From Diprion similis (taxonomy: Eukaryota > Arthropoda > Insecta > Hymenoptera > Diprionidae): a DNA stretch of 64,000 nucleotides. The notes under the pieces were generated by a model. It searched no databases, was not told the origin of the DNA, and worked only from the letters and a program-made list of their open reading frames with translations. The stretch lies in NCBI RefSeq assembly GCF_021155765.1, contig NC_060118.1:2666001-2730000 (forward strand), given 5' to 3'. The first letter of the stretch is position 1, and each line of letters begins with the position of its first letter. A program made the translations under genes and the position numbers. Of the stretch, positions 4,650 through 31,799 are shown piece by piece.

Positions 4650-5265
4650 GTGAATGCTGTCAGATAACGTTCCTAGACAAAAGTTGTCTTTTTGCGAACC
4701 AAACTGATTCAAATATGACTTTACAACACGACTCATAGTCGACATTTAGATATCAGCTTTTATACGTTTCTACATATAGAATATACATTACCTTTTAATA
4801 ATCTGTAAGCTGTATCAGTACCTAATACTTATTATTATTTGAGCATATTTGTCGTTTGAAAATAAAGATGAGTGGTTTCAGTCTACGTTCACAGCCTCGT
4901 GAGTATGTTTTTTATCTTGAGGTAGAAATTCATTGGAAAAGGTCATATTAAATAACTTACACCACAACCAGGGGGGTGACACTGGCACCTTTTCCTATAC
5001 GATAGATGCAAACGCGTTTTGTCTCGGAATCTGAAGTTCTTGAAAGCGCCACCAGCAGCGCTGGCTGTTACCTGAGCGGCCTGAGCGTCTTCGATATAAA
5101 TAAGCATATAAAGCGAGGCTGTCAGATCCGTCTGTAAACAGAAGACAGAAGGCCAGGAGACTGCCAGCGCCACGCTGCGACGGTTACAGATTGCGGACTA
5201 CTTTTCTCCGCCTGTGTCAGGGGGCTGACCACAACTATACATGGTGGCATTACCGAGCAGGGTAG
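4650..5265. other. No gene recognised
   Basis: AT-rich to about 4900, then a more GC-balanced stretch (4960-5265) ending where the LTR-like segment begins. A 76-codon frame on the minus strand (4943-5173) has no domain I recognise and is not supported. Confidence 0.3.
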
Positions 5266-7070
5266 TGTAACATCCGACCGGAACGTCCGTATGTTTTATT
5301 GTTTATGATTATTCCCTAACATTAGTTACCAACTAACCAAAACTCTAAATGTGAGAACTCTGTAAGAAAGTCATTCAAGGAAACTGCTTAACCATCTGAA
5401 AGCCCCTAGATGAGGCATAACAACCATTATCATTAATCAAGAGTCCAGAAACCATATTACAGGATCCTCACATTACAGGAGACTATGATATTATTATTTT
5501 ATTATCACAATTTACTAACACCATTATATCGAAATATTATACAATACCTAGTTGCAAACACGGAGTTTAGAGCCACATTATAGGCAACCTGCGCTACAGC
5601 CTACAGCCCACGAGATAGATAAGACTATAACATGAAGATATATAATCAATATAATATGAAATTAATAACATTAGAGAAATAACCTGTAAAGGCCAGGACT
5701 GCGATGCCTCTAAATACGTAAATACAAATTATTCAACATTCCCTTCCAAAACGCCGTATTGTAGGCAACGCGCCCAAACTTTGGAGGTAACGTAGACCTC
5801 TATTGCAGAACCGTACAGAACGCCACCTGGAGAGTGTATCAGTAACATAATAACAAAATCACCGAAGGTAAGCTAACTCACGGGATGATTCTGTAGGGCG
5901 AGGCAATCAAAAGGTAACTCAGGAAAATAATAATGAATAGACTATTATTAAATCATCAAAATCAAAACATCCACATTATTTTTGGAGACGAAGTATAATA
6001 GTGTTCCAGGATTAATTATCTTCTATAAAATATATCAAATATTATATTAGAGAACGCTCTTGTATCGCAGCTAAAACATTAAGCAAGCAAATTGATCAAT
6101 TATCTTCTATATAACCCTTCATTATATTCCCTAGCATACTAGAACATTCTAGAAATAAAAGTACGCTTGTAATATAACGCCCCGTACGCTCGAGAACGCC
6201 GACATTGTATAAAATCAAGACCAATATAATGATGTAGGTAAAGCTCACACGGATTCAACCCTAGGAAGCGGCGATCTCGAGCATACGCGCGTTACGCGCC
6301 CGAAGGCCACCTCATAAGGTTGTGTTAGACCCCCTACTCCTTCAGTACAACTACCAAGGGACCGCGCGCCTATCGACGAATACACTAGCGCGTTGCACCA
6401 ACACACATATACATGAAACTCATACCCATAACATACACTAATTCAAATCCTAAAAAACGAATACCACTCTAGTTCTCAATCTTAGAGAGGGGGTATGGAG
6501 CAAAGAGTTGGGGGCACAGTCCAAAGTCCAACTTTGCACCCGACACCAATAAATCCCATAGCATAGCATATCAGCCTAGTTTTAATTCTTAGAATAAGGG
6601 GAAGAAATGCGTTTTGTGAGGCAATGCTCGAGGAGAGGATTTCACACCCCTATCGTTACCGCTCTGAATAAATACGAGCACCCAGCGTTCATTCGCTCTC
6701 TTGGTTTTTATCTCCAGTAGCTACAATTACTCAGTAGATCCTCGCGGTAAAATCCTCTAGCATTTGCATTCCAACGACGAATCTCTGCCCGATTCATTAT
6801 CCAATTTTATATTATTAAAATTTGTTCATTCTTATTCTGTGTCTTTAATCAAAATATATTCTACTTTAAACCAATTCCAAATCTAAATTCTGTGTTCATT
6901 TAAAACAAGTTCCTTCATCACGCCTATACCACAGTTCCGGAAGAAGCCGTCTCATAAAAGGTAAGGTAAATGTTATTCTAGTAATTTATAACAATTTCCA
7001 ACTCTCCGTTAATATCCAATTACGCGAATTCGATCAAGTTGTCCATTTCACTTCAGTGATTAATCGATAT
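5266..7070 (+). mobile_element. LTR-like segment of a retrotransposon (plus orientation)
   Basis: It begins TGTAACATCCGACCG, the same end as the minus-strand segment at 56823-58667, and is of similar length (about 1.8 kb each). A TATA-like GAATAAATAC at 6666-6675 and a tRNA-complementary TGGCGACCCACAACT at 7071-7085 follow in the order expected for U3, R-U5 and primer-binding site. The family context suggests a Ty3/gypsy-type element with a tRNA-Arg-like primer site, but no gag-pol is present here. It ends in TAT rather than the canonical CA, so the exact 3' edge of the LTR is uncertain. Confidence 0.5.
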
Positions 7071-7085
7071 TGGCGACCCACAACT
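7071..7085 (+). promoter_or_regulatory. Putative retroelement primer-binding site
   Basis: TGGCGACCCACAACT starts with the TGG that pairs with a tRNA CCA end. The same 15 bases occur (inverted) at 56808-56822 at the same place in the second LTR copy. Confidence 0.5.
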
Positions 7086-7256
7086 ACTGATGTGAAGTCT
7101 AGCTAAACATCCGCGATAATCTCTAGTGGCAGTTTTGGGGATTTTTCGTGGAGTGCCGCTCCGACGTCACAGTAGCGTTCACCAGAAAAATGATTCCCTA
7201 ACAATATAGGGATTTCCTTGGACAGCTGGTACCACTGAACTCTATAGGATGCGTTC

Positions 7257-7378
7257 CGAAATTAACTGCCGGTGTTATCAGCAAACTCCTCATCTCTTGT
7301 GCGCTACGGAGTTTGTACCTAGCTTTGTCTCTGTCCTAGGGAGTTTTCAGTGCTGCCAGCTAGTTTCGGATTGCACCC
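7257..7378. mobile_element. GGATGCGTTCCGAAATTA MITE, 122 bp, TSD ATA
   Basis: Terminal inverted repeats GGATGCGTTCCGAAATTA and TTTCGGATTGCACCC are flanked by ATA on both sides. Related copies at 25172-25300 and 37765-37895 (TSD TTA) mark it as one family. A 3-bp TTA-like target is typical of PIF/Harbinger-derived MITEs. Confidence 0.65.
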
Positions 7379-7395
7379 ATAGTATAATATAGAGT

Positions 7396-8008
7396 CTTAG
7401 AGCATATACAGTATGGAGGAAGCGTGGCGACGGAAAACCCGCGAAAGAGAGGGACATAGTAAGACGAGTATTTCTCTCTTTCTACAGCAAGAGCGTACTT
7501 ATCGTAATTGAGTGCCCCAAGCACTGCAGCGATATTGTAGTACGAAGAACATGTCCTACACATGCAAATGCACTAGGGGGTCAGACGATTGAAACAAGTC
7601 GGTAAACTGTTGAGAAATATATGATTGAGTGGCACAAAATTGTTGATACAAACCCTATCATAACCTAAAAAATGAGTAACGTGAAACTTACCGATGAAAA
7701 CTAATAAAACCTTCTATAACATCTTGCTCAAGTTCGCACGTAGAAACATTTCCCTGTCATGATTTCATTCATCAAGTATTGAAGTCTGCTATAGGCAGTG
7801 TTTATAAGCTTCCAAGGTATGTTCAACAAACCTAGGGCGCCGGGGCCCTGTGCAACGAGCGTGAGTGTTCGGGGCGCTGCCTGCAGTCATCCAATCGCGA
7901 GCGTGCGAGACAGAGAAAGGTACTCGTCTTAATATTCCCCTCTCTGTGCCGTTTTCCACTTACACGAAAGGGTATACAAGGCTTCCTCCATACTGTATAT
8001 GCTCTAAG
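7396..8008. mobile_element. Intact CTTAGAG-family MITE, 613 bp, 8-bp TSD
   Basis: Inverted termini start CTTAGAGCATATACAGTATG at both ends. TATAGAGT at 7388-7395 and again at 8009-8016 is an exact 8-bp target site duplication, pointing to the hAT or P superfamily. No coding region. This copy forms the outermost part of the left palindrome arm. Confidence 0.85.
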
Positions 8009-8047
8009 TATAGAGTTCAGTGTACACATCTCACTCAAAGGCTTTAA

Positions 8048-8625
8048 CCAAAGAGTATAGGATAGAGCGGAAGGTACCCGTATCGCCCTATTACAGCGCC
8101 CCTAGCGGCTCAGAGGAAAAATATAACGTGTATGTGTAGCGTCAGTGAACATGCGATGTATGTAGTATTGTCGGTGTGATGACGGGGTCGCCATATTCTT
8201 TTAGTAAACATTGGGTAACAAACGAACTTTTTTCCAAAGATGCCAATTTCATGTGACGTCAAATTATGTTACAATATCAAGTATGTAAAAAATCAAAGCA
8301 TAAATAATGCCAAACAAGTGACGTTTTTCTCGTTACCATAAAAATCAGCAACTGTAAGTAAATATGAATATATAACCTCACTTTCGCGGGAATGTTGTGG
8401 GTCCTCACGTATCTTTATATATTGTGAAAACAAATGTGCACAATGATTTTCGTGTATGGTTGTTTTGGTAACAGTAATGTTCATCGATGCATGCACTGTG
8501 GCTAACTTTATTTTTTCAACTTTTGTTTCTTTTCTACTCGTATTTTATGTGCCTATGGCCGGTGAAACAGTGCACAGGAGAAATGGGAGAAACCACGACG
8601 ACAGCCTCTCGGCGCTGTCATCCAT
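8048..8625. mobile_element. THAP-bearing TIR element (palindrome left-arm copy)
   Basis: It starts CCAAAGAGTATAGGATAGAG, matches 55528 onward for about 440 bp, and holds a THAP first exon (8240). The segment 8475-8590 matches 58668-58785 in reverse orientation. The matching right terminus seen at 56523-56542 is missing here. Mirrored at 23594-24171. Confidence 0.6.
8240..8338 (+). pseudogene. Decayed THAP first exon
   Basis: It begins MPISCDVKLCYN with C-x4-C at residues 5 and 10 and reads to VTFFSLP before a stop (TTA CCA TAA). The copy at 55745-55857 reads on to a GTAAGT splice donor. The donor is still visible here at 8354. Mirrored on the minus strand at 23881-23979. Confidence 0.65.
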
Positions 8626-8816
8626 ATAACTTCTAAGATTGCGAGGGCACGAATAACCTCTTTCACAAAGTGCATAAGCCGTCAATTTAAGTATTAATAT
8701 TTAATTTTATCATATTTATATATTCGTCGAGTCTTAAATTAAGCCGTCAATTTAAGTATAAATATTTAATTTTATCATATTTATATATTCGTCGAGTCTT
8801 AAATTGACGGCATGTC
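8626..8816. repeat. MITE with duplicated 59-bp inner block
   Basis: The left end ATAACTTCTAAGATTGCG and the following 'gggcacgaataacctc' match the palindromic MITE at 56545-56717. Inside, a block from 'aagccgtcaatttaag' to 'tcgagtcttaaatt' occurs twice in tandem (about 8688-8745 and 8747-8805), then 'gacggc'. The second terminal repeat is lost. Mirrored at 23403-23593. Confidence 0.6.
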
Positions 8817-9083
8817 GTCGACAAAGGATGTACATACATCATGTTGATGGAAATATACTATATCTATCCAAATATAATCAATTGCTCTATTGCGTATATC
8901 CCTGTATCCCAACAGAATCAGAGCGGTCAGCCATCTTGATGAGCTAAATAGCTATACGTATACCCATATATGCGTATACCACGGACACACACAGATGTGT
9001 ACGCACGTGAAGTTGTTTGTTATCATTGTATAGGTTAAGTCAGAAGGTAGCCGACACGGACTGAGAATTCAGAATAATACAAC

Positions 9084-9182
9084 ATGCCTTATTGTGTAGC
9101 GCCTAACTGCAAAAACAGATCATTCTTAAAATCCAAAAAACAATGTGAGGTCGAAGTAGAGAATAATGGATTATTAATTTGA
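9084..9182 (+). pseudogene. THAP first-exon start (32 codons)
   Basis: ATG opens MPYCVAPNCKNRSFLKSKKQ, with C-x4-C at residues 4 and 9, typical of THAP N-termini and different from the other THAP starts in this window. The frame stops after 32 codons. No transposase body is seen downstream. Mirrored on the minus strand at 23037-23135. Confidence 0.6.
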
Positions 9183-12100
9183 AGTTGAATCTGCTTCCAA
9201 GGGCCGATTTTACCAACTTTGAATACCGTGATTCTTCCGAAAATTATATTCAACGAAGGAAATTGAATATTTTCCATTCCATCTAACGACAAATAGCAAC
9301 AATTCAGCACCTATTCAATTTATAATTAATAATATTTTCATCCAATAAATAAAATTCCTCCGAAAAAACGATAATATTTATGGTTGCTAAAACCGACACT
9401 TGTTCTATATACAATAATTTACGAATTATTCAACGCGATATTTTCTATCCATTCTGTCATTGTGTTATCATTTTTTTTTTTTTTTTCTCTGTACACATTT
9501 ATACTTATGGTATTATTCTGGTGCTTAGCACCTCTATAGAATGTACGCCGGAATTAAAATTGGATTTAAAGAAAATGTGCTTACCTGCACAGTTTCTTAT
9601 ACAAAAGAATTGAAGCTGTGTTCGTACATACCTATGCAGTTCGAGCGTTGACTGAGGATATGTAAAGACTTATAACCCTGGGTTATTTTTCGTAACAGTT
9701 CGGCGGGCCTGGGCGGGTTTGGGGGTATTAGCAGTTTCACGTATTATCGACCAAGTAACTGACCAGGCCGGTAAAAGAAGTTCTTCATAATCAACAACTA
9801 CTACGTGCAAAACGTTGGTAACATACCGTCCAACGTCGTCGCCATCGTGAATTTGATACGTTAAGAAAGTCCTGTACGAGAAATATGTACGCCGGAATTA
9901 TACAACGGAGAAATAAAAGTCAATCTTGCACTTAGATCTTGCATGAACGAGTGTCGTTTACATGTACCTGAATATAAAAAATATTTTATAGGCGACAGTG
10001 GCATCTCTAAGATGTTTAATTTACGTTTTCAAAGTTTTTTTAGGAAATCAACTTTGAGATACAAACATTTTGGAAAAATTTGACACTGCTTCATTTTCAA
10101 TTCTAATCGTTTCAAGAATGTCCCTACGAAGAATTCTTTGGCTCTGTTGCGCACTTCTAAAATTGTTAATTGAACAAATTCAATGTTCCAAGTTTTGAAA
10201 ACATCCGAAAAATTCTAAAAGAAAAGAAAAAAAAGATTTAGAAGCGCTCATTAGATTTTAGTTGAGAAAAATTACGCAAGTTCTTCAACAAATATGAAAA
10301 TGAATAATGAAAATGGATCTACCATGGGGTTCGTTGCAAATTAACTGAATTCTAGAACAAAAGTCTTGTGCATTTATTGAAAATTTTTATAAGATGTTAA
10401 CATTGTCTTTCAGTAATACAACTTTTTGGAAATGAGACGACAAATAGGTAGAAAAAATTATTTTACCTTCTGCATAGTATTGAACTACTTATCAAACCAT
10501 CTTTTTCTTCTCAATTGTTGAGAAACTAAATATTGATTATTATTAATTCATCAAGTACCAAATAGAGACGCAAAAAATCTTTTCCTCAGGGGGAAAATTT
10601 TGAAATGTTCAGAAATACATAAATAACATTACTGAAAAATCAACGGTTGTTTTTCATTAACTGATTTTCAAGTGGGGTAATCCGATGGCTCTCAAATCAT
10701 TAAATTCTATTTCCAACGCAACATTATCCGTATAGTCAATTTTCATCCCGTCGGCTGTACGTACTACCGTTACCAAAAGTTACTCATAGTCGAAACCTGC
10801 TATTCCACATCAAAGGAAGTTGAAAAAAGTATAGTTACACCTCGCACTGTTGCACATTTATTTGATTTCAAGAAGTGAAATTTAACTATATTGTTACCTG
10901 TTCGAAAGGTGCAGTTGAAAAAGTTGAAGAGACTGTTCAAAACAAAAGGAAATACCAGGTTTGTAGGCGCCTAGAATAAAAAGAGTACCGAAAACGTTAA
11001 TCGAAAGTAGTGTAGCAAGAGGATAACCCAAGAATTTGTTTGTACGTATTTATAATTGAACACAAAGATCACTTTGTCGCAGACCATAATCTTCCTTCTT
11101 ATATGAAAATGTTTTTTCTGGAATATTAAGAGTTACAAGTGCGCGTGATAAGTTTTTATTATCGTTAAGTGAAAAGCGTGTCAGCCTAAAAAGTACAGAT
11201 ACGTAGCTTTGGAATTTGATTTACGTGTCAAAAAAAGTCGATGATTGGTTGCAAAATCTTCCGAAAGCTTTGAGTCTTCTGCGTCCAATCCCTTGCTGAT
11301 CTTTGAAAAAAATTATCAACGCTAGCTATTACTATCGATATGTCGGAGACGTATTTTTGTTCACAGAGCTATCCGAAAAATCTGAGAAACATCAGAAACC
11401 TGCACCCTAGATATTACTCAAACCTCGACTCAAACTCATGCAATTTAAAATTTTGATAAATCTCGAAAGACTCAACTTTCAGGAGTTTAGATGTGCAAGT
11501 ACATGATTTTGAAAACGGGTGAAACAAGACAAAAACTCTATAGCGCAAAATTTGCAATGAAATTGAAACTACGTAATCAGACCCTGCACCCAGTAAAGTC
11601 GTGTCGGCGGGCGCATCAGCTGACACCGGGGTATCGTCACATACAATGTATGCATTTACGCAATAGGTATAAATCCCTGACGAAAGATATAGGTATATCT
11701 TCATCAACGTTCTCTACAAGTATGTAGATCTATTCCACCTGTCAAAAATATGCTTGTATTCCATACTCCGACAAGCCAATTTACAACTCCTTCTTCATCG
11801 AGTTCTACTACTTTTATTCTCTAAGTTCTAATTACTCTGGAAGTATCGATTCCAACATTTTAATATTTATCAATCTTCCGAATCAACTTTCTACGAATAA
11901 GAATTTGTCACTCAACAGTGCTTGATATCAATTTACAGTAGTTTTGTCCGTTGATACTACTTATCTTTTTGACCGCTCATTCCCTGCGTGGAGAATTAGA
12001 GAGTAGAGACGTGTAATTACGTGTAGGTGACGAGTTCATCTAGTTCAAAAGGTCTATATAGTTCAACCCATGAGTTCGACAGCCGCTCGTCGGAACTGGT

Positions 12101-13947
12101 TGACTACCCCTAAAACACATATCGAATTATGCATTTTTTATTTGTAAATTGTTAAATTTTACGCATTAAAAGTCATTTTTACATAGAAAGCACAGATTAG
12201 CCTTGATAGGTAAGCCAGTACCTACTTGAATATAGAATGTAGTAGCAAAGTCTCAATTTTGAGATGTTTTTTATTTCTTGATTCAAAAAATTTGACGTGA
12301 TTATTTTTTTGTACTCCAAGAAATTGAAGTAGGAAATTTTTATATTTTTCAGAATTATTTCTCACTCTTTATTTCGAAAAATTCTAATGGGAATTTATTT
12401 TCATTCTCTTTATCCGGAACATCAAATAATGAATCAGTTCTTCTCTTTATCTAAAATTTAATTCAGAAGTAAATCTCCTTCTTCAATGAGCGAATTCGCA
12501 TTATTACTCTCAATTTTTTTATTCAAAAACTCTAAGTAAGAATTTTTTTGAAAATTTTGGTTTGATTAGCGTAATTAAGAATGAACGGTGTTATCCGTAA
12601 TTTCTAGTTTGAAACTAAAGAATAACCCGACACTGTGACGTTTTATTATGTAGTAGTGTCAAAAACGTACAGGCAGTGGGTAACGAGTTGCAAGCCGATG
12701 CGTTTGCCGGCCCAAGCACAGTGAGTGGTTCGAGGCAGCGGCTGGGCGAAAATACCACACGGCGGCGGCCAGACTGACTGTGAGTGACGGGGTAAGCGGC
12801 ACAGCGATGGGTGTTACGCCTCTCTTCGCCGAGTGTGCACAAAGTAAGTTATTTGGTATATTATACCAGCCCGATTCAATTTCTTTTGAACGGAGCAAAA
12901 ATACCTTTTTTTTTTATCGATTTTCGCGATATTTGCACTCGAGTGCACTTCCGTTTTTCAATATGAACATATCTTCCGAAGGAGACAAGTATTTTACATA
13001 CGCAGTGTTTTTCAGTAAAATCGCTATGAACTAAATAGTATCAATTTTTATTCTATTCTTTCAAATATTCAGCTTCGTCTGATGGCTTCATTCGATCGTA
13101 AGACCGAACCTCTTTCGTTATTTCAACAACGAGTATTTTCTAGAGCAAGCCTGTGATTCTTATTTGGGTTTCCATGTATATACTCTAACGACTGACGATG
13201 AAACGAATTGTACTTACGGTAACGATCTGCAAAATAAAATCAAAAAATTGAAAACCACTTTTTCCAACCTATTGCTGGTGATATGCTAACGTCAAAATCT
13301 TATCTCAGACATGTTCGATGATTCGTTGGAAGTAGAAGACTCTTGAGGCTTCCGAAAGGTCTTACGACATTTCCTGTATTTGTTTTTGACAGAGATATGA
13401 TGCTTCATACCTTGACCTTTGACGCATTCATTCGAGCGATAAACTGTTTAGCATGAAACCATCCATATATAATCGGCGATAATTGATGAGAATTCGATTA
13501 TAAATAATCCGGAAAAACCATCTCTAGGTAATATCAGTCTTTAGTTTTTTATGTCCAATTTAAAATTTGAATTAATTTTTATGACGTTTCAAAAAAGTTT
13601 TATGAGTGAAAAGAGGGATTGACGAACATTGAATTACGGTCAATCGCTTTACTCTACTTCGGCAAAACCGTATATATTTGAATACTACTTATCATTGTCA
13701 TCTTTTGTCTGTGCATACTTGGATTGCGTGTTCCAGCAATTGGATTGATGCTGTAATTTCTTTCTTCCAGACTTTCAGCATGTAACTAGCAATTGTCTAC
13801 CGAATTGGTCAATGAATGATTTTCATTAACTTTTATTCATAATTATTTATCAATTTCACTTATTCGAAAAAATATTGACAAGTAGTATTTTTGTGTAGAA
13901 AGGTCTGCGTTTTCCGCTGCAAACATTATATTTTTTAAAAACCATGT
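9183..13947. other. Palindrome left arm, no gene recognised
   Basis: Long AT-rich DNA with scattered stops in all frames. Short open stretches at 11414-11707 and 12615-12898 show no domain and are mirrored exactly on the other arm. 'atgtacgccggaatta' occurs twice (about 9541 and 9888), hinting at further decayed repeats. A GC-richer island lies at about 12650-12840. Confidence 0.5.
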
Positions 13948-14531
13948 AAAATATGAAATACAGTAACAGAAATACAAATATTTTTGACCTAATCTATACA
14001 TTGAATGACGAACCAAGTAACTAACCAATCAGACTAAACTAAACTAAAGCGTAGTAAACATATTACATTGCAAAGAATAGGTAGCCTGAGGCGCTTGTAT
14101 AATTTGACGGATACTAAAGTGTAGCTATGATTATGTAATTAGATGGCTTGAATTCATACATATGGATTATATATAATCTATCATTACTTAATTGCATTAC
14201 TATTAACAGGTATCTTAGTTATTATTTTCTTTTCTTAGTTTTCAAGTACAAGTTGTGCACTCGTTTCTTCAGTTTCTTACTGTTGGGGATTTTGTCTTCG
14301 GGTTTGAAATGTGCCCCGCACATCGTATATACTTTGTAAATATGGTCATCGCTGATTTCGTTGAATCTCGGATGTTGTGCTCGTTGTTTCCAAATTTAAA
14401 ACACATTTTTTTAGTTTTCCGGAAATCTGTGCCGGATAGATGTTTTATCACAACAGTTTAGCACACAGCACTTTGCAACTCGAGACATTTTTGATTTAAC
14501 ACTCTTCGTCAACAAACATTTCAAATAATAC
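13948..14531 (-). mobile_element. Internally deleted P-superfamily element (left-arm copy)
   Basis: Bases 13948-14264 match the 3' part of the P element at about 59165-59480. Bases 14265-14531 match its 5' THAP exon region at about 62932-63203. The junction lies at 'gtacaagttgtgc' fused to 'actcgtttcttc', so about 3.45 kb of transposase body is missing. The THAP exon (ATG at 14493-14495, reading MSRVAKCCVLNCC) has a stop after 25 codons where the long copy reads NEKD. Mirrored at 17688-18271. Confidence 0.8.
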
Positions 14532-14756
14532 GGCAATGCGACAAGCAACAGGTGATTCCAAGGTGATTGTTGAAAGCAGAATGGTTGACAAAATGGCGGT
14601 GGCTGACGTTGAGGGCATCCAGGAAGTAAGAGGGAGGCGTCGCACTGGGAATTGGCCTGCGACTGCAGCGCCAAGGAGTGTGCCGTGGTTGTGTGCAGTA
14701 CTAAACACGGTATCGGTCGGCCTATCTTAGATTCCAGGCCCTGGTACAGGGCAGTA
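14532..14756. repeat. Unclassified repeat with THAP-like fragment
   Basis: On the plus strand bases 14680-14706 read PWLCAVLN, resembling a THAP start, and a near copy lies at 58791-58815. No complete element boundary was found. Mirrored at 17463-17687. Confidence 0.35.
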
Positions 14757-15147
14757 ATTATTTCCGATCTTAACGCTTTTTATGTCTATCTCGACTGGAC
14801 TATAGACTTATAAGATAGACTGAACGCTCTTATGAGTTGCTTGAACCAAGGATATAAAGGACAGAGATGTGTCGGGAGTATTTCCCTCTCTGTCTGGCGA
14901 TATTAGTGGCAGGGACTAAGTATAGGAGAACGAGGAGAAATACGCATATGACAGGCGTAAAGCTGTTCCACTTCCACTGCTCCGTTGTCTCCCACCATGA
15001 CGCCGCTTGAAAAGAGAGAGCAGTACTCCCGGATATCTCTGTCCTTCATATGTGAGCGTCAGTGCCTCTTATAGAAGCGGTCAGTCTATCTTATAAGTCT
15101 ATAGTCCAGTCGAGATAGACATAAAAAGCGTTAAGATCGGAAATAAT
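14757..15147. mobile_element. 391-bp MITE with ~85-bp terminal inverted repeats
   Basis: The left terminus ATTATTTCCGATCTTAACGC and the right terminus GCGTTAAGATCGGAAATAAT are inverted. Pairing continues through 'ctataagacttataagatag'-like sequence, apart from a few differences. The inner 'ttccctctctgtc' blocks recall the CTTAGAG family. No target duplication was recognised. Mirrored at 17072-17462. Confidence 0.7.
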
Positions 15148-17071
15148 GAGAGAGTGCGATTTTTTTTTAACCTTCAGGAGGGGTGGTCGGTAGTCTAAAT
15201 TTCGATTTTCGGGAAAATCCCCCCATTGCGTTTGTCGCCATCTTGATTTAAAGGGTGATTTTTTTGTTCTTTGAATAACTCGCTTAATTTTAACTTGAGA
15301 GTGAAAATCATAATAACCAAAGTTATGGAAAATGCAATTCCCCACATTTTTGGTGATTATAAATTTTACCCTAGGACCGATATTTGTAGAGTTAGAATGC
15401 AAATAAGGGTGAAAAACTGTTTTTTCGGTTATTTCGTTTATTATCAACTTTATCCCAAAAATGGTAAGACGCAATCTTGTCGGAAACTTTATTTTCTTCA
15501 ATTTAGGTGATTACCATTTTGACCCTAGGATCAATATTTTCCGACTTACACTTCATTCAGAGGTGGGAATTTTTTTTATTTACAATTATTTCGTTTATCA
15601 TCAACTTTATCGTAAAAATGGTAGGGTGTAATTTTGTAGAAAACTTTATTTGCTTGAATTTTGGTTGATACCATTTTTACCCTAGGATCAACATTTTCTG
15701 ACTTACACTTCATTCAGGGGTGGGGATTTTTTTTTTATTTACGATTATTTCGTTTATCATTAACTTTATCGTAAAAATGGTAGGAAGTAACCTTGTCGGA
15801 AACTTTATTTTCTTCAATTTAGGTTATTACCATTTTTACCCTAGGATCAATATTTTCCAACTTACACTTCATTCAGGGGTGGGGATTTTTTTTCTTTACA
15901 GTTATTTCGTTTATTATCAACTTTATCGTAAAAATGGTAAGAAGTAATCTTGTTGGAAACTGTATTTGCTTAAATTTTGGTTATCACCATTTTTACCCTA
16001 GGATCACTATTTTGAAAGACGTAATAAAAATAGCTGTGCAATTCTTTTTTCAGTTCGTTTATTTCAAAGTTTTGTATAAAAGTAGGCAATGAACACACCA
16101 GGTACGATATTTGAGTTCCTCCAGTTTGGTTGAGTCTTCGCACCGTTAAAAGGCTTTCCACCCTAAATAAAAAAAATTCTCACCCCTGAATGAAGTGTAA
16201 GTCAGAAAATATTGATCCTAGGGTAAAAATGGTAATAACCTAAATTGAAGAAAATAAAGTTTCCGACAAGGTTACTTCCTACCATTTTTACGATAAAGTT
16301 AATGATAAACGAAATAATCGTAAATAAAAAAAAAATCCCCACCCCTGAATGAAGTGTAAGTCAGAAAATGTTGATCCTAGGGTAAAAATGGTATCAACCA
16401 AAATTCAAGCAAATAAAGTTTTCTACAAAATTACACCCTACCATTTTTACGATAAAGTTGATGATAAACGAAATAATTGTAAATAAAAAAAATTCCCACC
16501 CCTGAATGAAGTGTAAGTCAGAAAATGTTGATCCTAGGGTAAAAATGGTATCAACCAAAATTCAAGCAAATAAAGTTTTCTACAAAATTACACCCTACCA
16601 TTTTTACGATAAAGTTGATGATAAACGAAATAATTGTAAATAAAAAAAATTCCCACCTCTGAATGAAGTGTAAGTCGGAAAATATTGATCCTAGGGTCAA
16701 AATGGTAATCACCTAAATTGAAGAAAATAAAGTTTCCGACAAGATTGCGTCTTACCATTTTTGGGATAAAGTTGATAATAAACGAAATAACCGAAAAAAC
16801 AGTTTTTCACCCTTATTTGCATTCTAACTCTACAAATATCGGTCCTAGGGTAAAATTTATAATCACCAAAAATGTGGGGAATTGCATTTTCCATAACTTT
16901 GGTTATTATGATTTTCACTCTCAAGTTAAAATTAAGCGAGTTATTCAAAGAACAAAAAAATCACCCTTTAAATCAAGATGGCGACAAACGCAATGGGGGG
17001 ATTTTCCCGAAAATCGAAATTTAGACTACCGACCACCCCTCCTGAAGGTTAAAAAAAAATCGCACTCTCTC
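15148..17071. mobile_element. Foldback element of ~158-bp subrepeats at palindrome centre
   Basis: Units carrying 'ccctaggatcaatatttt', 'cttacacttcattcag', 'tttcgtttat' and 'gtaaaaatggtag' recur every 157-159 bp on the left (for example at 15543, 15700 and 15859) and inverted on the right. The right side has one extra B-type unit (about 16340-16495). The left has an extra partial unit ending near 16010. A ~140-bp unique core (about 16011-16150) separates the two sets. The long open frames here (15091-15501 minus and its mirror 16718-17128 plus) translate the repeats and are not genes. Confidence 0.75.
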
Positions 17072-17462
17072 ATTATTTCCGATCTTAACGCTTTTTATGT
17101 CTATCTCGACTGGACTATAGACTTATAAGATAGACTGACCGCTTCTATAAGAGGCACTGACGCTCACATATGAAGGACAGAGATATCCGGGAGTACTGCT
17201 CTCTCTTTTCAAGCGGCGTCATGGTGGGAGACAACGGAGCAGTGGAAGTGGAACAGCTTTACGCCTGTCATATGCGTATTTCTCCTCGTTCTCCTATACT
17301 TAGTCCCTGCCACTAATATCGCCAGACAGAGAGGGAAATACTCCCGACACATCTCTGTCCTTTATATCCTTGGTTCAAGCAACTCATAAGAGCGTTCAGT
17401 CTATCTTATAAGTCTATAGTCCAGTCGAGATAGACATAAAAAGCGTTAAGATCGGAAATAAT
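17072..17462. mobile_element. Mirror copy of the 391-bp MITE
   Basis: Right-arm counterpart of 14757-15147, in inverted orientation. Confidence 0.7.
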
Positions 17463-17687
17463 TACTGCCCTGTACCAGGGCCTGGAATCTAAGATAGGCC
17501 GACCGATACCGTGTTTAGTACTGCACACAACCACGGCACACTCCTTGGCGCTGCAGTCGCAGGCCAATTCCCAGTGCGACGCCTCCCTCTTACTTCCTGG
17601 ATGCCCTCAACGTCAGCCACCGCCATTTTGTCAACCATTCTGCTTTCAACAATCACCTTGGAATCACCTGTTGCTTGTCGCATTGCC

Positions 17688-18271
17688 GTATTATTTGAAA
17701 TGTTTGTTGACGAAGAGTGTTAAATCAAAAATGTCTCGAGTTGCAAAGTGCTGTGTGCTAAACTGTTGTGATAAAACATCTATCCGGCACAGATTTCCGG
17801 AAAACTAAAAAAATGTGTTTTAAATTTGGAAACAACGAGCACAACATCCGAGATTCAACGAAATCAGCGATGACCATATTTACAAAGTATATACGATGTG
17901 CGGGGCACATTTCAAACCCGAAGACAAAATCCCCAACAGTAAGAAACTGAAGAAACGAGTGCACAACTTGTACTTGAAAACTAAGAAAAGAAAATAATAA
18001 CTAAGATACCTGTTAATAGTAATGCAATTAAGTAATGATAGATTATATATAATCCATATGTATGAATTCAAGCCATCTAATTACATAATCATAGCTACAC
18101 TTTAGTATCCGTCAAATTATACAAGCGCCTCAGGCTACCTATTCTTTGCAATGTAATATGTTTACTACGCTTTAGTTTAGTTTAGTCTGATTGGTTAGTT
18201 ACTTGGTTCGTCATTCAATGTATAGATTAGGTCAAAAATATTTGTATTTCTGTTACTGTATTTCATATTTT
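17688..18271 (+). mobile_element. Internally deleted P-superfamily element (right-arm copy)
   Basis: Exact inverted counterpart of 13948-14531, with the same deletion junction and the same premature stop in the THAP exon (17725-17802). Confidence 0.8.
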
Positions 18272-21200
18272 ACATGGTTTTTAAAAAATATAATGTTTGC
18301 AGCGGAAAACGCAGACCTTTCTACACAAAAATACTACTTGTCAATATTTTTTCGAATAAGTGAAATTGATAAATAATTATGAATAAAAGTTAATGAAAAT
18401 CATTCATTGACCAATTCGGTAGACAATTGCTAGTTACATGCTGAAAGTCTGGAAGAAAGAAATTACAGCATCAATCCAATTGCTGGAACACGCAATCCAA
18501 GTATGCACAGACAAAAGATGACAATGATAAGTAGTATTCAAATATATACGGTTTTGCCGAAGTAGAGTAAAGCGATTGACCGTAATTCAATGTTCGTCAA
18601 TCCCTCTTTTCACTCATAAAACTTTTTTGAAACGTCATAAAAATTAATTCAAATTTTAAATTGGACATAAAAAACTAAAGACTGATATTACCTAGAGATG
18701 GTTTTTCCGGATTATTTATAATCGAATTCTCATCAATTATCGCCGATTATATATGGATGGTTTCATGCTAAACAGTTTATCGCTCGAATGAATGCGTCAA
18801 AGGTCAAGGTATGAAGCATCATATCTCTGTCAAAAACAAATACAGGAAATGTCGTAAGACCTTTCGGAAGCCTCAAGAGTCTTCTACTTCCAACGAATCA
18901 TCGAACATGTCTGAGATAAGATTTTGACGTTAGCATATCACCAGCAATAGGTTGGAAAAAGTGGTTTTCAATTTTTTGATTTTATTTTGCAGATCGTTAC
19001 CGTAAGTACAATTCGTTTCATCGTCAGTCGTTAGAGTATATACATGGAAACCCAAATAAGAATCACAGGCTTGCTCTAGAAAATACTCGTTGTTGAAATA
19101 ACGAAAGAGGTTCGGTCTTACGATCGAATGAAGCCATCAGACGAAGCTGAATATTTGAAAGAATAGAATAAAAATTGATACTATTTAGTTCATAGCGATT
19201 TTACTGAAAAACACTGCGTATGTAAAATACTTGTCTCCTTCGGAAGATATGTTCATATTGAAAAACGGAAGTGCACTCGAGTGCAAATATCGCGAAAATC
19301 GATAAAAAAAAAAGGTATTTTTGCTCCGTTCAAAAGAAATTGAATCGGGCTGGTATAATATACCAAATAACTTACTTTGTGCACACTCGGCGAAGAGAGG
19401 CGTAACACCCATCGCTGTGCCGCTTACCCCGTCACTCACAGTCAGTCTGGCCGCCGCCGTGTGGTATTTTCGCCCAGCCGCTGCCTCGAACCACTCACTG
19501 TGCTTGGGCCGGCAAACGCATCGGCTTGCAACTCGTTACCCACTGCCTGTACGTTTTTGACACTACTACATAATAAAACGTCACAGTGTCGGGTTATTCT
19601 TTAGTTTCAAACTAGAAATTACGGATAACACCGTTCATTCTTAATTACGCTAATCAAACCAAAATTTTCAAAAAAATTCTTACTTAGAGTTTTTGAATAA
19701 AAAAATTGAGAGTAATAATGCGAATTCGCTCATTGAAGAAGGAGATTTACTTCTGAATTAAATTTTAGATAAAGAGAAGAACTGATTCATTATTTGATGT
19801 TCCGGATAAAGAGAATGAAAATAAATTCCCATTAGAATTTTTCGAAATAAAGAGTGAGAAATAATTCTGAAAAATATAAAAATTTCCTACTTCAATTTCT
19901 TGGAGTACAAAAAAATAATCACGTCAAATTTTTTGAATCAAGAAATAAAAAACATCTCAAAATTGAGACTTTGCTACTACATTCTATATTCAAGTAGGTA
20001 CTGGCTTACCTATCAAGGCTAATCTGTGCTTTCTATGTAAAAATGACTTTTAATGCGTAAAATTTAACAATTTACAAATAAAAAATGCATAATTCGATAT
20101 GTGTTTTAGGGGTAGTCAACCAGTTCCGACGAGCGGCTGTCGAACTCATGGGTTGAACTATATAGACCTTTTGAACTAGATGAACTCGTCACCTACACGT
20201 AATTACACGTCTCTACTCTCTAATTCTCCACGCAGGGAATGAGCGGTCAAAAAGATAAGTAGTATCAACGGACAAAACTACTGTAAATTGATATCAAGCA
20301 CTGTTGAGTGACAAATTCTTATTCGTAGAAAGTTGATTCGGAAGATTGATAAATATTAAAATGTTGGAATCGATACTTCCAGAGTAATTAGAACTTAGAG
20401 AATAAAAGTAGTAGAACTCGATGAAGAAGGAGTTGTAAATTGGCTTGTCGGAGTATGGAATACAAGCATATTTTTGACAGGTGGAATAGATCTACATACT
20501 TGTAGAGAACGTTGATGAAGATATACCTATATCTTTCGTCAGGGATTTATACCTATTGCGTAAATGCATACATTGTATGTGACGATACCCCGGTGTCAGC
20601 TGATGCGCCCGCCGACACGACTTTACTGGGTGCAGGGTCTGATTACGTAGTTTCAATTTCATTGCAAATTTTGCGCTATAGAGTTTTTGTCTTGTTTCAC
20701 CCGTTTTCAAAATCATGTACTTGCACATCTAAACTCCTGAAAGTTGAGTCTTTCGAGATTTATCAAAATTTTAAATTGCATGAGTTTGAGTCGAGGTTTG
20801 AGTAATATCTACGGTGCAGGTTTCTGATGTTTCTCAGATTTTTCGGATAGCTCTGTGAACAAAAATACGTCTCCGACATATCGATAGTAATAGCTAGCGT
20901 TGATAATTTTTTTCAAAGATCAGCAAGGGATTGGACGCAGAAGACTCAAAGCTTTCGGAAGATTTTGCAACCAATCATCGACTTTTTTTGACACGTAAAT
21001 CAAATTCCAAAGCTACGTATCTGTACTTTTTAGGCTGACACGCTTTTCACTTAACGATAATAAAAACTTATCACGCGCACTTGTAACTCTTAATATTCCA
21101 GAAAAAACATTTTCATATAAGAAGGAAGATTATGGTCTGCGACAAAGTGATCTTTGTGTTCAATTATAAATACGTACAAACAAATTCTTGGGTTATCCTC

Positions 21201-23036
21201 TTGCTACACTACTTTCGATTAACGTTTTCGGTACTCTTTTTATTCTAGGCGCCTACAAACCTGGTATTTCCTTTTGTTTTGAACAGTCTCTTCAACTTTT
21301 TCAACTGCACCTTTCGAACAGGTAACAATATAGTTAAATTTCACTTCTTGAAATCAAATAAATGTGCAACAGTGCGAGGTGTAACTATACTTTTTTCAAC
21401 TTCCTTTGATGTGGAATAGCAGGTTTCGACTATGAGTAACTTTTGGTAACGGTAGTACGTACAGCCGACGGGATGAAAATTGACTATACGGATAATGTTG
21501 CGTTGGAAATAGAATTTAATGATTTGAGAGCCATCGGATTACCCCACTTGAAAATCAGTTAATGAAAAACAACCGTTGATTTTTCAGTAATGTTATTTAT
21601 GTATTTCTGAACATTTCAAAATTTTCCCCCTGAGGAAAAGATTTTTTGCGTCTCTATTTGGTACTTGATGAATTAATAATAATCAATATTTAGTTTCTCA
21701 ACAATTGAGAAGAAAAAGATGGTTTGATAAGTAGTTCAATACTATGCAGAAGGTAAAATAATTTTTTCTACCTATTTGTCGTCTCATTTCCAAAAAGTTG
21801 TATTACTGAAAGACAATGTTAACATCTTATAAAAATTTTCAATAAATGCACAAGACTTTTGTTCTAGAATTCAGTTAATTTGCAACGAACCCCATGGTAG
21901 ATCCATTTTCATTATTCATTTTCATATTTGTTGAAGAACTTGCGTAATTTTTCTCAACTAAAATCTAATGAGCGCTTCTAAATCTTTTTTTTCTTTTCTT
22001 TTAGAATTTTTCGGATGTTTTCAAAACTTGGAACATTGAATTTGTTCAATTAACAATTTTAGAAGTGCGCAACAGAGCCAAAGAATTCTTCGTAGGGACA
22101 TTCTTGAAACGATTAGAATTGAAAATGAAGCAGTGTCAAATTTTTCCAAAATGTTTGTATCTCAAAGTTGATTTCCTAAAAAAACTTTGAAAACGTAAAT
22201 TAAACATCTTAGAGATGCCACTGTCGCCTATAAAATATTTTTTATATTCAGGTACATGTAAACGACACTCGTTCATGCAAGATCTAAGTGCAAGATTGAC
22301 TTTTATTTCTCCGTTGTATAATTCCGGCGTACATATTTCTCGTACAGGACTTTCTTAACGTATCAAATTCACGATGGCGACGACGTTGGACGGTATGTTA
22401 CCAACGTTTTGCACGTAGTAGTTGTTGATTATGAAGAACTTCTTTTACCGGCCTGGTCAGTTACTTGGTCGATAATACGTGAAACTGCTAATACCCCCAA
22501 ACCCGCCCAGGCCCGCCGAACTGTTACGAAAAATAACCCAGGGTTATAAGTCTTTACATATCCTCAGTCAACGCTCGAACTGCATAGGTATGTACGAACA
22601 CAGCTTCAATTCTTTTGTATAAGAAACTGTGCAGGTAAGCACATTTTCTTTAAATCCAATTTTAATTCCGGCGTACATTCTATAGAGGTGCTAAGCACCA
22701 GAATAATACCATAAGTATAAATGTGTACAGAGAAAAAAAAAAAAAAAATGATAACACAATGACAGAATGGATAGAAAATATCGCGTTGAATAATTCGTAA
22801 ATTATTGTATATAGAACAAGTGTCGGTTTTAGCAACCATAAATATTATCGTTTTTTCGGAGGAATTTTATTTATTGGATGAAAATATTATTAATTATAAA
22901 TTGAATAGGTGCTGAATTGTTGCTATTTGTCGTTAGATGGAATGGAAAATATTCAATTTCCTTCGTTGAATATAATTTTCGGAAGAATCACGGTATTCAA
23001 AGTTGGTAAAATCGGCCCTTGGAAGCAGATTCAACT
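18272..23036. other. Palindrome right arm, no gene recognised
   Basis: Inverted duplicate of 9183-13947. No domain-bearing frame. Confidence 0.5.
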
Positions 23037-23135
23037 TCAAATTAATAATCCATTATTCTCTACTTCGACCTCACATTGTTTTTTGGATTTTAAGAATGAT
23101 CTGTTTTTGCAGTTAGGCGCTACACAATAAGGCAT
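23037..23135 (-). pseudogene. THAP first-exon start, mirror copy
   Basis: Inverted counterpart of 9084-9182. Confidence 0.55.
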
Positions 23136-23402
23136 GTTGTATTATTCTGAATTCTCAGTCCGTGTCGGCTACCTTCTGACTTAACCTATACAATGATAAC
23201 AAACAACTTCACGTGCGTACACATCTGTGTGTGTCCGTGGTATACGCATATATGGGTATACGTATAGCTATTTAGCTCATCAAGATGGCTGACCGCTCTG
23301 ATTCTGTTGGGATACAGGGATATACGCAATAGAGCAATTGATTATATTTGGATAGATATAGTATATTTCCATCAACATGATGTATGTACATCCTTTGTCG
23401 AC

Positions 23403-24171
23403 GACATGCCGTCAATTTAAGACTCGACGAATATATAAATATGATAAAATTAAATATTTATACTTAAATTGACGGCTTAATTTAAGACTCGACGAATATA
23501 TAAATATGATAAAATTAAATATTAATACTTAAATTGACGGCTTATGCACTTTGTGAAAGAGGTTATTCGTGCCCTCGCAATCTTAGAAGTTATATGGATG
23601 ACAGCGCCGAGAGGCTGTCGTCGTGGTTTCTCCCATTTCTCCTGTGCACTGTTTCACCGGCCATAGGCACATAAAATACGAGTAGAAAAGAAACAAAAGT
23701 TGAAAAAATAAAGTTAGCCACAGTGCATGCATCGATGAACATTACTGTTACCAAAACAACCATACACGAAAATCATTGTGCACATTTGTTTTCACAATAT
23801 ATAAAGATACGTGAGGACCCACAACATTCCCGCGAAAGTGAGGTTATATATTCATATTTACTTACAGTTGCTGATTTTTATGGTAACGAGAAAAACGTCA
23901 CTTGTTTGGCATTATTTATGCTTTGATTTTTTACATACTTGATATTGTAACATAATTTGACGTCACATGAAATTGGCATCTTTGGAAAAAAGTTCGTTTG
24001 TTACCCAATGTTTACTAAAAGAATATGGCGACCCCGTCATCACACCGACAATACTACATACATCGCATGTTCACTGACGCTACACATACACGTTATATTT
24101 TTCCTCTGAGCCGCTAGGGGCGCTGTAATAGGGCGATACGGGTACCTTCCGCTCTATCCTATACTCTTTGG
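23403..24171. mobile_element. Mirror copies of the 59-bp-duplication MITE and the THAP TIR element
   Basis: Inverted counterpart of 8048-8816. It includes the decayed THAP exon on the minus strand (23881-23979) and the element end at about 24150-24171. Confidence 0.6.
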
Positions 24172-24210
24172 TTAAAGCCTTTGAGTGAGATGTGTACACT
24201 GAACTCTATA

Positions 24211-24823
24211 CTTAGAGCATATACAGTATGGAGGAAGCCTTGTATACCCTTTCGTGTAAGTGGAAAACGGCACAGAGAGGGGAATATTAAGACGAGTACC
24301 TTTCTCTGTCTCGCACGCTCGCGATTGGATGACTGCAGGCAGCGCCCCGAACACTCACGCTCGTTGCACAGGGCCCCGGCGCCCTAGGTTTGTTGAACAT
24401 ACCTTGGAAGCTTATAAACACTGCCTATAGCAGACTTCAATACTTGATGAATGAAATCATGACAGGGAAATGTTTCTACGTGCGAACTTGAGCAAGATGT
24501 TATAGAAGGTTTTATTAGTTTTCATCGGTAAGTTTCACGTTACTCATTTTTTAGGTTATGATAGGGTTTGTATCAACAATTTTGTGCCACTCAATCATAT
24601 ATTTCTCAACAGTTTACCGACTTGTTTCAATCGTCTGACCCCCTAGTGCATTTGCATGTGTAGGACATGTTCTTCGTACTACAATATCGCTGCAGTGCTT
24701 GGGGCACTCAATTACGATAAGTACGCTCTTGCTGTAGAAAGAGAGAAATACTCGTCTTACTATGTCCCTCTCTTTCGCGGGTTTTCCGTCGCCACGCTTC
24801 CCCCATACTGTATATGCTCTAAG
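24211..24823. mobile_element. Mirror copy of the CTTAGAG MITE, lacking an outer TSD
   Basis: Inverted counterpart of 7396-8008. The inner flank keeps the duplicated target (ACTCTATA, 24203-24210). The outer flank reads ATGTGAAC rather than a copy of it. This asymmetry matters for how the palindrome formed. Confidence 0.85.
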
Positions 24824-24824
24824 A

Positions 24825-25453
24825 TGTGAACCTAGTCTAACTACAAGAAATTTAATTTTTTAATTCCGTATTTTTTTTCATTCCTAGAGATAATACCTCT
24901 ATATTCATAAAGCTACATCCAGTGCAGCTGGCTGTCAGTTCTCTTTAGCAATATTCAGTCGACGATCGTAACTAGTAAGGCTAGATTTTCACAGGCAAAA
25001 TGACGCAGCAGCAGACAGCGCGACGCTACGACAGCAAAAAACTACCCGTGAAAATGCTTTTGCAGCAGCAGCAAAACGCTGCCCAACATAGGGCATTTTG
25101 CTGCACGTGAATAAAATTAAATGTCCTAGGGAGTATTTGGCACTGCCAGCTAATTCAGAACGCACACTGTAGGTGCGTTCCGAAATTAGCTAGCAACGCT
25201 ACAAACTCCCTAGGACAGAGGCAGAGCTACTCGCGAACTCAAAACTGCAACAGAGATAAAAGATTGTTGACAGCATTCGGAGCGAATATCGGAACGCACC
25301 CTATGCTTCCTATGGTCAGGAGTGTCAGGACGATAATTTAAGAAGGGTAATCCGTCGTTGATTTGGTTTAATTACTGCAGATTATCTGACCGTGTCCAGA
25401 TGAAGTTGTAAATAATCATAGTCAGGGCAAAACATAGTTTTCAGTGCTTGAGA
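24825..25453. other. Upstream region of mRpS15 with MITE insertions
   Basis: Single-copy flank beyond the palindrome. A CAG-rich patch with inverted 'gcattttgctgc' sequences lies at about 25005-25110. A half MITE and a full MITE follow (25121-25300). The last ~150 bases before the mRpS15 ATG should hold its promoter; I see no clear TATA box. Confidence 0.4.
25172..25300. mobile_element. GGTGCGTTCCGAAATTAGC MITE, 129 bp
   Basis: Inverted ends GGTGCGTTCCGAAATTAGC and CGGAACGCACC; same family as 7257-7378 and 37765-37895. An inverted second half-copy lies directly to its left (about 25121-25165), so the two together form a hairpin around 'tgta'. Confidence 0.6.
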
Positions 25454-29052: not shown

Positions 29053-29087
<35 letters not shown>

Positions 29088-30270
29088 GGTGATTTTTTTT
29101 GAACGACTATTTTTTTTTTCCAGTCCCCATCGAAAATTTTGTTCTATATGTCGAACAAAAAATGCCCTTAAAGTTATAGCCCTTAATATTAATATTAAGT
29201 ACTCGCCCAGGGCGTGAAAAGATTTCCCATATAAAATACACGTGAATCGAAGCGTTTTTTTTTTCAAATCTCTACAACTCAGCGGAATTTTATGATATCA
29301 CGTTGGTCTTGGTCGCAATTTACGCAGAATTGAACGATCTTCGAAAGTGTCTAAAACGTCGTGAGTCCAACTTACACTGGTGAGATGGTACAGGTCACTA
29401 TAGTTGATTTTTACCCAAAATTCTCCATTTTTCGCTGTTATCTCCGAGATGATTAACTTTACCAAAAAAATGTAGCGGATAACTTTGTTGGAAATTTGGT
29501 TTCCTACAAGAAAGGTCCTATAGACCAAAATGCTCAGATTGATATTTTTTGAGATATTGAACTTTAACTTCTTGCCGTATAAAATTTTTATGGTTTATCG
29601 AATCAAACGTTTTAAATTATTGATATTGTATTGGAATTTGATTTTTTTCGATTCGATTCGATCCATTCGATCTATTCCATGGGAATAACAGTAATTCAAA
29701 ACGTTTGATTCAATAAACCATAATGTTTATTGGCTATTTAGATTAAAACGTTCAATTCAATAGAACATAAAAATTTTATACGTTAAGTAAGTTGAATTCC
29801 GATATCTCAAAAAATATCAATCTGAGCATCTTGGTTTATAGGACCTTTTTTGTAGGAAACCAAATTTCCAACAAAGTTATCCTCTACATTTTTTCGGTAA
29901 AGTTAATCATTTCGGAGATAACAGCGAAAAATGGAGAATTTTGGGTAAAAATCAACTGTAGTGACCTGTACCATCTCACCAGTGTAAGTTGGACTCACGA
30001 CGTTTTAGACACTTTCGAAGATCGTTCAATTCTGCGTAAATTGCGACCAAGACCAATGTGATATCATAAAATTCCGCTGAGTTGTAGAGATTTGAAAAAA
30101 AAACGCTTCGATTCACGTGTATTTTATATGGGAAATCTTTTCACGCCCGGGGCGAGTACTTAATATTAATATTAAGGGCTATAACTTTAAGGGCATTTTT
30201 TGTTCGACATATAGAACAAAATTTTCGATGGGGACTGGAAAAAAAAAATAGTCGTTCAAAAAAAATCGCC

Positions 30271-30309
<39 letters not shown>

Positions 30310-31737: not shown

Positions 31738-31799
31738 ACCACGGTCTTCTATACAGGTCTGGCGACTCGGCCGGTTTTATGGTGGTGGGGGTGTCCCGC
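31738..31799. repeat. CACGGTCTT-family terminal relic, 5' of MEAF6
   Basis: CACGGTCTTCTATACAGG followed by a GGTGGTGGGGGTG block corresponds to the left end of the element at 1357-2456. It is cut by the TTAA element starting at 31804. It lies 61 bases upstream of the MEAF6 start codon. Confidence 0.6.

What the first reader, a model, noticed from the sequence alone, without database searches (positions are those of the whole stretch)
7395..24824. 17.4-kb near-perfect palindrome with 8.3-kb arms
Every landmark obeys x + y = 32219, and by eye only two mismatched pairs were found (7417/24802 and 11407/20812). Such a large, young inverted duplication without genes is rare on autosomes outside sex-chromosome palindromes and amplified regions. 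The arms contain decayed elements that carry the same mutations on both sides, so the duplication is later than those decays or has been homogenised by gene conversion. Any read-through transcript would fold into kilobases of double-stranded RNA, a possible hairpin-siRNA or piRNA source.
Basis: seen in the sequence. Interest (0 to 1): 0.9.

Follow-up and report, generated by a model that had tools for sequence, protein, structure and literature searches.

The report
Young palindrome bounded by mobile elements
A 17.4-kb stretch of this genome is a nearly perfect mirror image of itself, apparently made recently when the left half was copied backwards from inside a hairpin-shaped mobile element as far as the end of another mobile element; such repair-type duplications are known in kind, and this one keeps unusually clear marks of how it was made.

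Summary
Window 7395-24824 is a palindrome with only two substitutions (7417/24802, 11407/20812) over the ungapped arms. Once one extra 157-bp tandem unit in the right arm is allowed for, near-identity runs further: left arm 7395-15857, right arm 16205-24824, loop 347 bp.

The arms are nested repeat debris. The centre is a fold-back-like element E (15104-17115); the outer edges are termini of a 613-bp MITE. Two independent marks make the left arm the original and the right arm the copy. The left MITE keeps a perfect 8-bp target duplication (TATAGAGT), whereas the right one ends bare on DNA without another match in the genome search. And E, which has one 'left' and one 'right' terminus in 4 of 4 two-ended copies found outside the window, here has two left termini.

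Best reading: a break in E's right inverted array was repaired by copying from its left array, through 8.4 kb, to the MITE terminus. Why copying stopped there (transposase cut, or a second MITE) is open. A hairpin-RNA role is possible but untested. An assembly mis-join is unlikely but not excluded. No paper could be searched or read.

The parts
7395..15857 (+). Left arm of the palindrome (original copy)
   Evidence: Pairs with 24824-16205; 2 substitutions, plus one 157-bp unit extra in the right arm
16205..24824 (-). Right arm of the palindrome (derived copy)
   Evidence: Same; derived because its MITE lacks an outer target duplication and E's right terminus is of the left type
15858..16204 (.). 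Loop: rest of the left 157-bp array, E's ~150-bp internal spacer (about 16014-16163) and 41 bp read as the remainder of E's own right array (16164-16204)
   Evidence: spacer runs colinear with E at C12 (L034: 15586-16163 = 1501-2076, 92%)
7388..7395 (+). 8-bp target-site duplication TATAGAGT, outer copy (left side only)
   Evidence: Read; identical to 8009-8016
7396..8008 (+). 613-bp MITE with ~28-bp terminal inverted repeats CTTAGAGCATATACAGTATGGAGGAAGC; its outer terminus is the palindrome edge
   Evidence: Near-full-length other copies 91-97%, shorter pieces also present; ends and target duplications
24211..24823 (-). Mirror copy of the MITE: inner target duplication present (24203-24210 ACTCTATA), outer one absent (24824 onwards ATGTGAAC)
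8915..9645 (+). ~730-bp repeat that includes a short frame resembling the start of a THAP domain (9084-9182; resemblance by eye only)
   Evidence: Other copies 90-93%; the frame has no Pfam match
9646..13950 (+). Repeat D, ~4.3 kb, non-coding, many copies, mostly 83-95% in pieces
13945..14746 (+). ~800-bp element, probably an internally deleted P-like element; copies elsewhere 97-99%
   Evidence: 13945-14258 and 14258-14530 match window 59165-59478 (95%) and 62930-63202 (97%), either side of the P-like transposase frames; its last ~216 bp have no match there
15104..17115 (+). Fold-back-like element E with inverted 157-bp tandem arrays; in this copy both termini are of the left type
15429..16013 (+). 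Left 157-bp tandem array of E (3.7 units)
16164..16790 (-). Right 157-bp tandem array of E (4.0 units): from 16205 on a copy of the left array with one unit doubled
24825..25121 (+). Right flank: DNA without another match in the genome, meeting the bare MITE terminus
   Evidence: Only its own place matched (the tool warns that no match does not prove rarity); a ~130-bp repeat family begins at about 25122

Best explanation
A real, recent inverted duplication made by repair-type DNA synthesis and seeded by transposable elements. Inferred steps: (1) a break left a DNA end in the right inverted array of fold-back-like element E. (2) That end paired with E's left array, in the same molecule or the sister chromatid. 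(3) Synthesis ran leftwards through 8.4 kb of repeats, slipping once by a 157-bp unit. (4) It ended at the outer terminus of the MITE at 7396 and was joined there to the right flank. Shown by the sequence: the left arm is the template, the inner switch point lies inside E, and the outer junction lies at the MITE terminus to within 1 bp. Inferred: the break, the pairing and the reason for stopping. My first choice for the last is a transposase cut at the MITE end, i.e. a faulty ('alternative') transposition (about 0.4). A second MITE already at the right flank, offering homology, is nearly as likely (about 0.35; first rival below, which shares steps 1-3). I expect no selected function; transcription across it would give a long hairpin RNA.
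For: Target duplication TATAGAGT at 7388-7395 and 8009-8016, absent at the right edge. Of the 10 other MITE copies examined, 6 have 8-bp duplications directly at both ends (4 perfect, 2 with one mismatch); in the other 4 (L011, L013, L018, L019) an end is truncated or altered. E termini: 4 of 4 two-ended copies outside the window (C12, C13, C2:2.95 Mb, C2:60 kb) have one left-type and one right-type end; the window's E has left-type at both. At up to 3 mismatches the right-type end occurs 5 times in the genome, 0 times in the window. In those 4 E copies inverted identity stays inside E. The arm's order of elements was seen at none of the other loci fetched, though these reach only about 1.5 kb beyond a match. 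One doubled 157-bp unit in the copied array, otherwise 100% over 15562-15857.
Against: No reads, strains or related species were available, so neither the ancestral state nor the assembly could be checked. The outer junction shares 1 bp (A) with the template, so end joining that fell at the terminus by chance cannot be excluded; I estimate the chance of falling within 1 bp of one of roughly ten element termini in the arm at about 0.4% (my arithmetic, not a call). The nearest MITE relatives are about 3% away, so a MITE-moving transposase may not have been active recently. One of the two substitutions lies 22 bp inside the MITE terminus (chance 0.0055 for the outermost 23 bp), which the simple transposase version does not predict. 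More diverged relatives of E's arrays (for instance C10:5.55 Mb and C14:2.19 Mb, about 72-79%) were not examined for their ends.
Confidence: 0.6

Rival explanations
1. Same copying event (a variant of the best explanation, so the two confidences overlap), but the outer end was fixed by homology: a second, inverted MITE already lay at the right flank, and the new strand rejoined the chromosome through it. The outermost ~22 bp would then belong to that older MITE.
For: The substitution at 24802 (G on the MITE strand) is base 22 of the terminal repeat, where 20 of the 21 ends read have A; those 21 include 4 ends of the palindrome itself and one at window 2458. Chance that one of two random substitutions lies in the outermost 23 bp: 0.0055. 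Other MITE pieces lie nearby on the same contig (C14:2668458, 2743752-2744571, 2751693-2752293).
Against: The crossover would have to lie in the last few tens of the 613 bp; a copy several per cent diverged should otherwise leave more differences. None of the other ends read has this G.
Confidence: 0.3
2. Older palindrome kept identical by arm-to-arm gene conversion; the present identity then says nothing about age, and conversion fails near the edges.
For: The substitution near the outer edge and the sharp fall of identity in the loop fit weaker conversion at the ends.
Against: The element at 13945-14746, 97-99% identical to copies elsewhere, is in both arms, which a young duplication explains without conversion; no independent sign of conversion tracts.
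Confidence: 0.2
3. Assembly artefact: the assembly path turned round inside E's inverted arrays, retraced the arm and left through a MITE end.
For: Both breakpoints lie in repeats, as a graph mis-join would.
Against: The arms differ by two substitutions and a whole 157-bp unit; the window has no N and sits in a 14.3-Mb contig, which suggests long reads (inference), for which a ~28-bp terminal repeat gives no overlap; the two flanks differ.
Confidence: 0.1
4. One giant transposon with 8-kb terminal inverted repeats, moved as a unit.
For: It is bounded by transposon termini at both ends.
Against: No target duplication around the whole (7388-7395 TATAGAGT against 24824-24831 ATGTGAAC); the left duplication belongs to the 613-bp MITE alone; the component elements occur separately elsewhere.
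Confidence: 0.03

Closest known systems
Inverted duplications from alternative transposition (maize Ac/Ds sister-chromatid and reversed-ends transposition; Drosophila P hybrid-element insertion) - recalled, no paper could be read
   Same: Duplication edge at the end of a DNA transposon, without the target duplication expected there; MITE with 8-bp target duplications
   Different: The inner edge lies inside another element's inverted arrays, not at a transposon end; no second participating element end was seen; the transposase that moves this MITE is unknown
Palindrome formation from a short inverted repeat by fold-back or break-induced copying (yeast, Tetrahymena rDNA, amplicons) - recalled
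   Same: Pre-existing inverted repeat with a short loop in the centre; long near-perfect arms outside it
   Different: Interstitial, joined to distinct DNA on both sides, not terminal or extrachromosomal
Fold-back / Galileo-like transposons - recalled
   Same: Element E: long inverted ends built of tandem units around a small core
   Different: E's own inverted ends are a few hundred bp; the 8.4-kb arms are not its own; no transposase or clear target duplication assigned to E
Sex-chromosome palindromes of mammals - recalled
   Same: Arms over 99.9% identical, small loop
   Different: Two orders of magnitude smaller than the largest, no genes found, chromosome type unknown

Membership tests
Interstitial inverted segmental duplication (palindrome) | Two long inverted arms of very high identity around a short loop | tested here: met
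   2 substitutions and one 157-bp unit between arms of 8463/8620 bp, loop 347 bp
Interstitial inverted segmental duplication (palindrome) | Different sequence on the two outer sides | tested here: met
   Left: ~130-bp repeat and a 1.9-kb repeat; right: DNA with no other match for ~300 bp
Interstitial inverted segmental duplication (palindrome) | Present in DNA, not only in the assembly | not testable with these tools
   No reads available
Alternative-transposition product | Breakpoint at the terminus of a DNA transposon, target duplication missing on that side | tested here: met
   24823/24824; one further base matches, as chance would give one time in four
Alternative-transposition product | Matching transposase active at the time | tested here: inconclusive
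   A P-like transposase lies at 59650-61978, but its link to this MITE is not shown; the autonomous partner of the MITE was not sought beyond a list of matching ends
Giant transposon with 8-kb terminal inverted repeats | Target-site duplication around the whole unit and further copies | tested here: not met
   No duplication; no second copy of the unit in the capped lists
Fold-back-like element (E) | Long terminal inverted repeats built of tandem units | tested here: met
   157-bp arrays in inverted order; 3 of 3 of the closest other copies have inverted ends at 90-94%
Fold-back-like element (E) | Target-site duplication | tested here: inconclusive
   Flanks of the four two-ended copies show no clear shared duplication by eye
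Hairpin-siRNA or piRNA locus | Transcription and small RNAs from the locus | not testable with these tools
   Only foldability shown

The most novel reading that the evidence does not exclude
One aberrant transposition at a MITE terminus, completed by copying through a fold-back-like element, turned a nested-transposon region into a 17-kb interstitial palindrome. If this pairing of element types does so repeatedly, it would be a general way for genomes to gain long hairpin RNA loci directed against several transposon families at once.
Probability: 0.12. Interest if true: 0.65.

Novelty: new member of a known kind. Interest (0 to 1): 0.4.

Why it matters
How long interstitial palindromes arise is, as far as I recall, mostly inferred from older cases. 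Here the copy direction, the inner switch point and the outer junction can be read to within a few bases to tens of bases, so models of palindrome formation can be tested on one locus by looking at an unduplicated relative. If transcribed, the locus would make dsRNA carrying at least four repeat families.

Tried and rejected
Giant-transposon reading: rejected, no target duplication around the unit and no further copy in the capped lists. Inner edge at 15724: corrected, it is a one-unit register shift, not the end of identity. E's original right end elsewhere in the window: no match of the C12 copy of E to either flank. C13:9.085-9.094 Mb carries two D copies in inverted order, but they are mostly 90-92% alike, about as much as each resembles the window's D (89-94% in the longer pieces), so not a second young palindrome. 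tRNA scan (bacterial code) and Rfam: nothing; with a lax threshold one sub-threshold hit outside the palindrome (25119-25220). Pfam on arm frames: nothing. Species not identified: I meant to test insect origin with an odorant-receptor family search, which did not complete, so 'insect' is not claimed.

Full report
Observation. The window is position 2666001-2730000 of contig C14 of a 269-Mb assembly in 60 contigs; the contig is 14.3 Mb long. Pairing x with 32219-x gives 99-100 matches per 100 bases from 7400 to 15699 and 22-34 outside the left edge. Exactly two pairs fail between 7395 and 15724: 7417/24802 and 11407/20812. The arms are therefore 8463 and 8620 bp and the loop 347 bp.

What the arms are made of. 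From outside in: a 613-bp MITE (7396-8008; near-full-length other copies 91-97%); stretches within 8049-8811 that recur between 55.5 and 58.8 kb in the same window; a ~730-bp repeat (8915-9645); repeat D, 9646-13950, with many copies, mostly 83-95% in pieces; an ~800-bp element, 13945-14746, with copies at 97-99%. Of the last, 13945-14258 and 14258-14530 match window 59165-59478 and 62930-63202 at 95% and 97%, and the remaining ~216 bp do not match there; it is probably an internally deleted P-like element. The frames between those two places match Pfam TNP-like domains, and one matches P transposase 6p5a by sequence (E 2.3e-14; that this is the Drosophila protein is recalled). The centre is element E. 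All 4 left-arm frames of 99 codons or more were scanned without a Pfam match.

The central element. E has inverted arrays of 157-bp units (3.7 and 4.0 units) around a ~150-bp spacer. Three close relatives, at C12:0.83 Mb, C2:2.95 Mb and C13:11.74 Mb, have a similar build with inverted ends 90-94% alike. Their termini are not equal: one end is of the left type and the other of the right type. A fourth, more diverged two-ended copy at C2:60 kb shows the same, so 4 of 4 found at up to 3 mismatches. A fifth right-type end, at C11:13.94 Mb, has no left partner among the matches. More diverged array relatives listed were not examined. In the window E has left-type termini at both 15104 and 17115, and the right type is absent from the window. 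E's right half was thus overwritten by a copy of its left half. In the 4 two-ended copies the inverted identity does not extend beyond E, so the 8.4-kb arms are not E's own structure. Two further left-type fragments, at 14757-14800 and its mirror, lie just outside E in both arms; with the neighbouring segment F they remain unexplained.

The outer edges. The left MITE is flanked by a perfect 8-bp duplication TATAGAGT (7388-7395, 8009-8016). Of 10 other MITE copies examined, 4 have perfect 8-bp duplications, 2 have one mismatch, and in 4 an end is truncated or altered. The mirror MITE at 24211-24823 has the inner duplication but continues outward into ATGTGAACC, DNA with no other match in the genome search for about 300 bp, after which a ~130-bp repeat family begins. 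The palindrome thus ends at the MITE terminus; the one further matching base (7395/24824) is expected by chance one time in four. This independently shows that the left side is the original context and the right edge a new junction.

Is the unit found elsewhere? Among the loci fetched, 10 window-derived ones set aside, none repeats the arm's order of elements. Partial neighbours occur: L031 has D plus copies of 8473-8811 in another arrangement, and L037 has a piece of 9376-9627 (85%) near E. The loci mostly reach only about 1.5 kb beyond a match and the match lists are capped, so this is not a full census.

How it was most likely made. Both marks give the same direction: left template, right copy. 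I place the switch between 16164, where E's right array begins, and 16205, from where the copy is perfect. The doubled 157-bp unit in the copy is what slippage during synthesis through a tandem array would leave (inference). I infer repair synthesis that started from an end in E's right array, paired with E's left array and ran to the MITE terminus. The stop at a transposon end suggests either a transposase cut there or a second MITE at the right flank that offered homology. For the second: the substitution at 24802 is base 22 of the terminal repeat, where 20 of 21 ends read have another base, and one of two random substitutions falls in the outermost 23 bp with probability 0.0055. Against it: the crossover would have to be confined to the last few tens of bases. 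Weak conversion near the edge would explain the same fact. I leave the choice open.

Age. Two substitutions in about 8.4 kb is 2.4 in 10,000. With a recalled insect-like rate of about 3 in 10^9 per site and generation this would be some tens of thousands of generations, but the organism is not identified and gene conversion would void the estimate.

Could it be an artefact? Both breakpoints lie in repeats, which is a reason for care. Against it: the arms differ (two substitutions, one unit), the flanks differ, the loop keeps the order seen in the C12 copy of E, and the window has no N. I put it at about 0.1.

Function. The central 939 nt fold into one long hairpin (-583.6 kcal/mol; 20 shuffles, mean -183.8). 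That is a property of any palindrome. No transcription or small-RNA evidence was available, and I do not claim a function.

Literature. Every paper search and both papers asked for by DOI failed. All comparisons with maize Ac/Ds, P hybrid insertion, fold-back/Galileo elements, fold-back palindromes and sex-chromosome palindromes are from recall. I cannot say whether this locus is in print.

Wording and coordinates were mended against the calls (right flank now 24825-25121; the P-like match limited to 13945-14530; limits of the loci and lists stated).

Noticed in passing
14746-15104 (and mirror 17115-17473): A ~300-bp segment F with partly inverted ends lies between E's left end and a 44-bp inverted fragment of the same E left end (14757-14800). 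At C11:13.9425 Mb (L050) the same F (94%) abuts an E right-type end. E and F may belong to a larger element, or a small earlier fold-back copying occurred here.
   Followed up: partly
31799-36156 and 32887-34314: Two nested units with ~600-bp inverted ends at 98.3% and 99.2%: probably young DNA elements with long terminal inverted repeats, one inside the other. The outer starts CTTAAGG and ends CCTTAAG.
   Followed up: no
29056-30302: Inverted repeat of 560 bp at 95.9% whose outer ends are TA dinucleotide runs.
   Followed up: no
about 5264-7172: The left flank is mostly a 1.9-kb repeat with many copies at 95-98% and others at 85-93%, several of them next to the ~130-bp repeat seen at 7246-7378. 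At C14:2751692 a copy abuts a MITE copy that lacks its first 12 bp.
   Followed up: partly
59165-63202: P-like element with two long transposase frames (402 and 326 codons), matched to TNP-like Pfam domains and P transposase.
   Followed up: partly
49057-51519: Open frame of 820 codons with a long serine-rich run from a 6-bp tandem array (50509-50834); perhaps an exon of a host gene; no Pfam match.
   Followed up: no
C13:9085066-9093869 (L023, L024): Two D copies in inverted order, mostly 90-92% alike: an older or chance inverted pair.
   Followed up: partly
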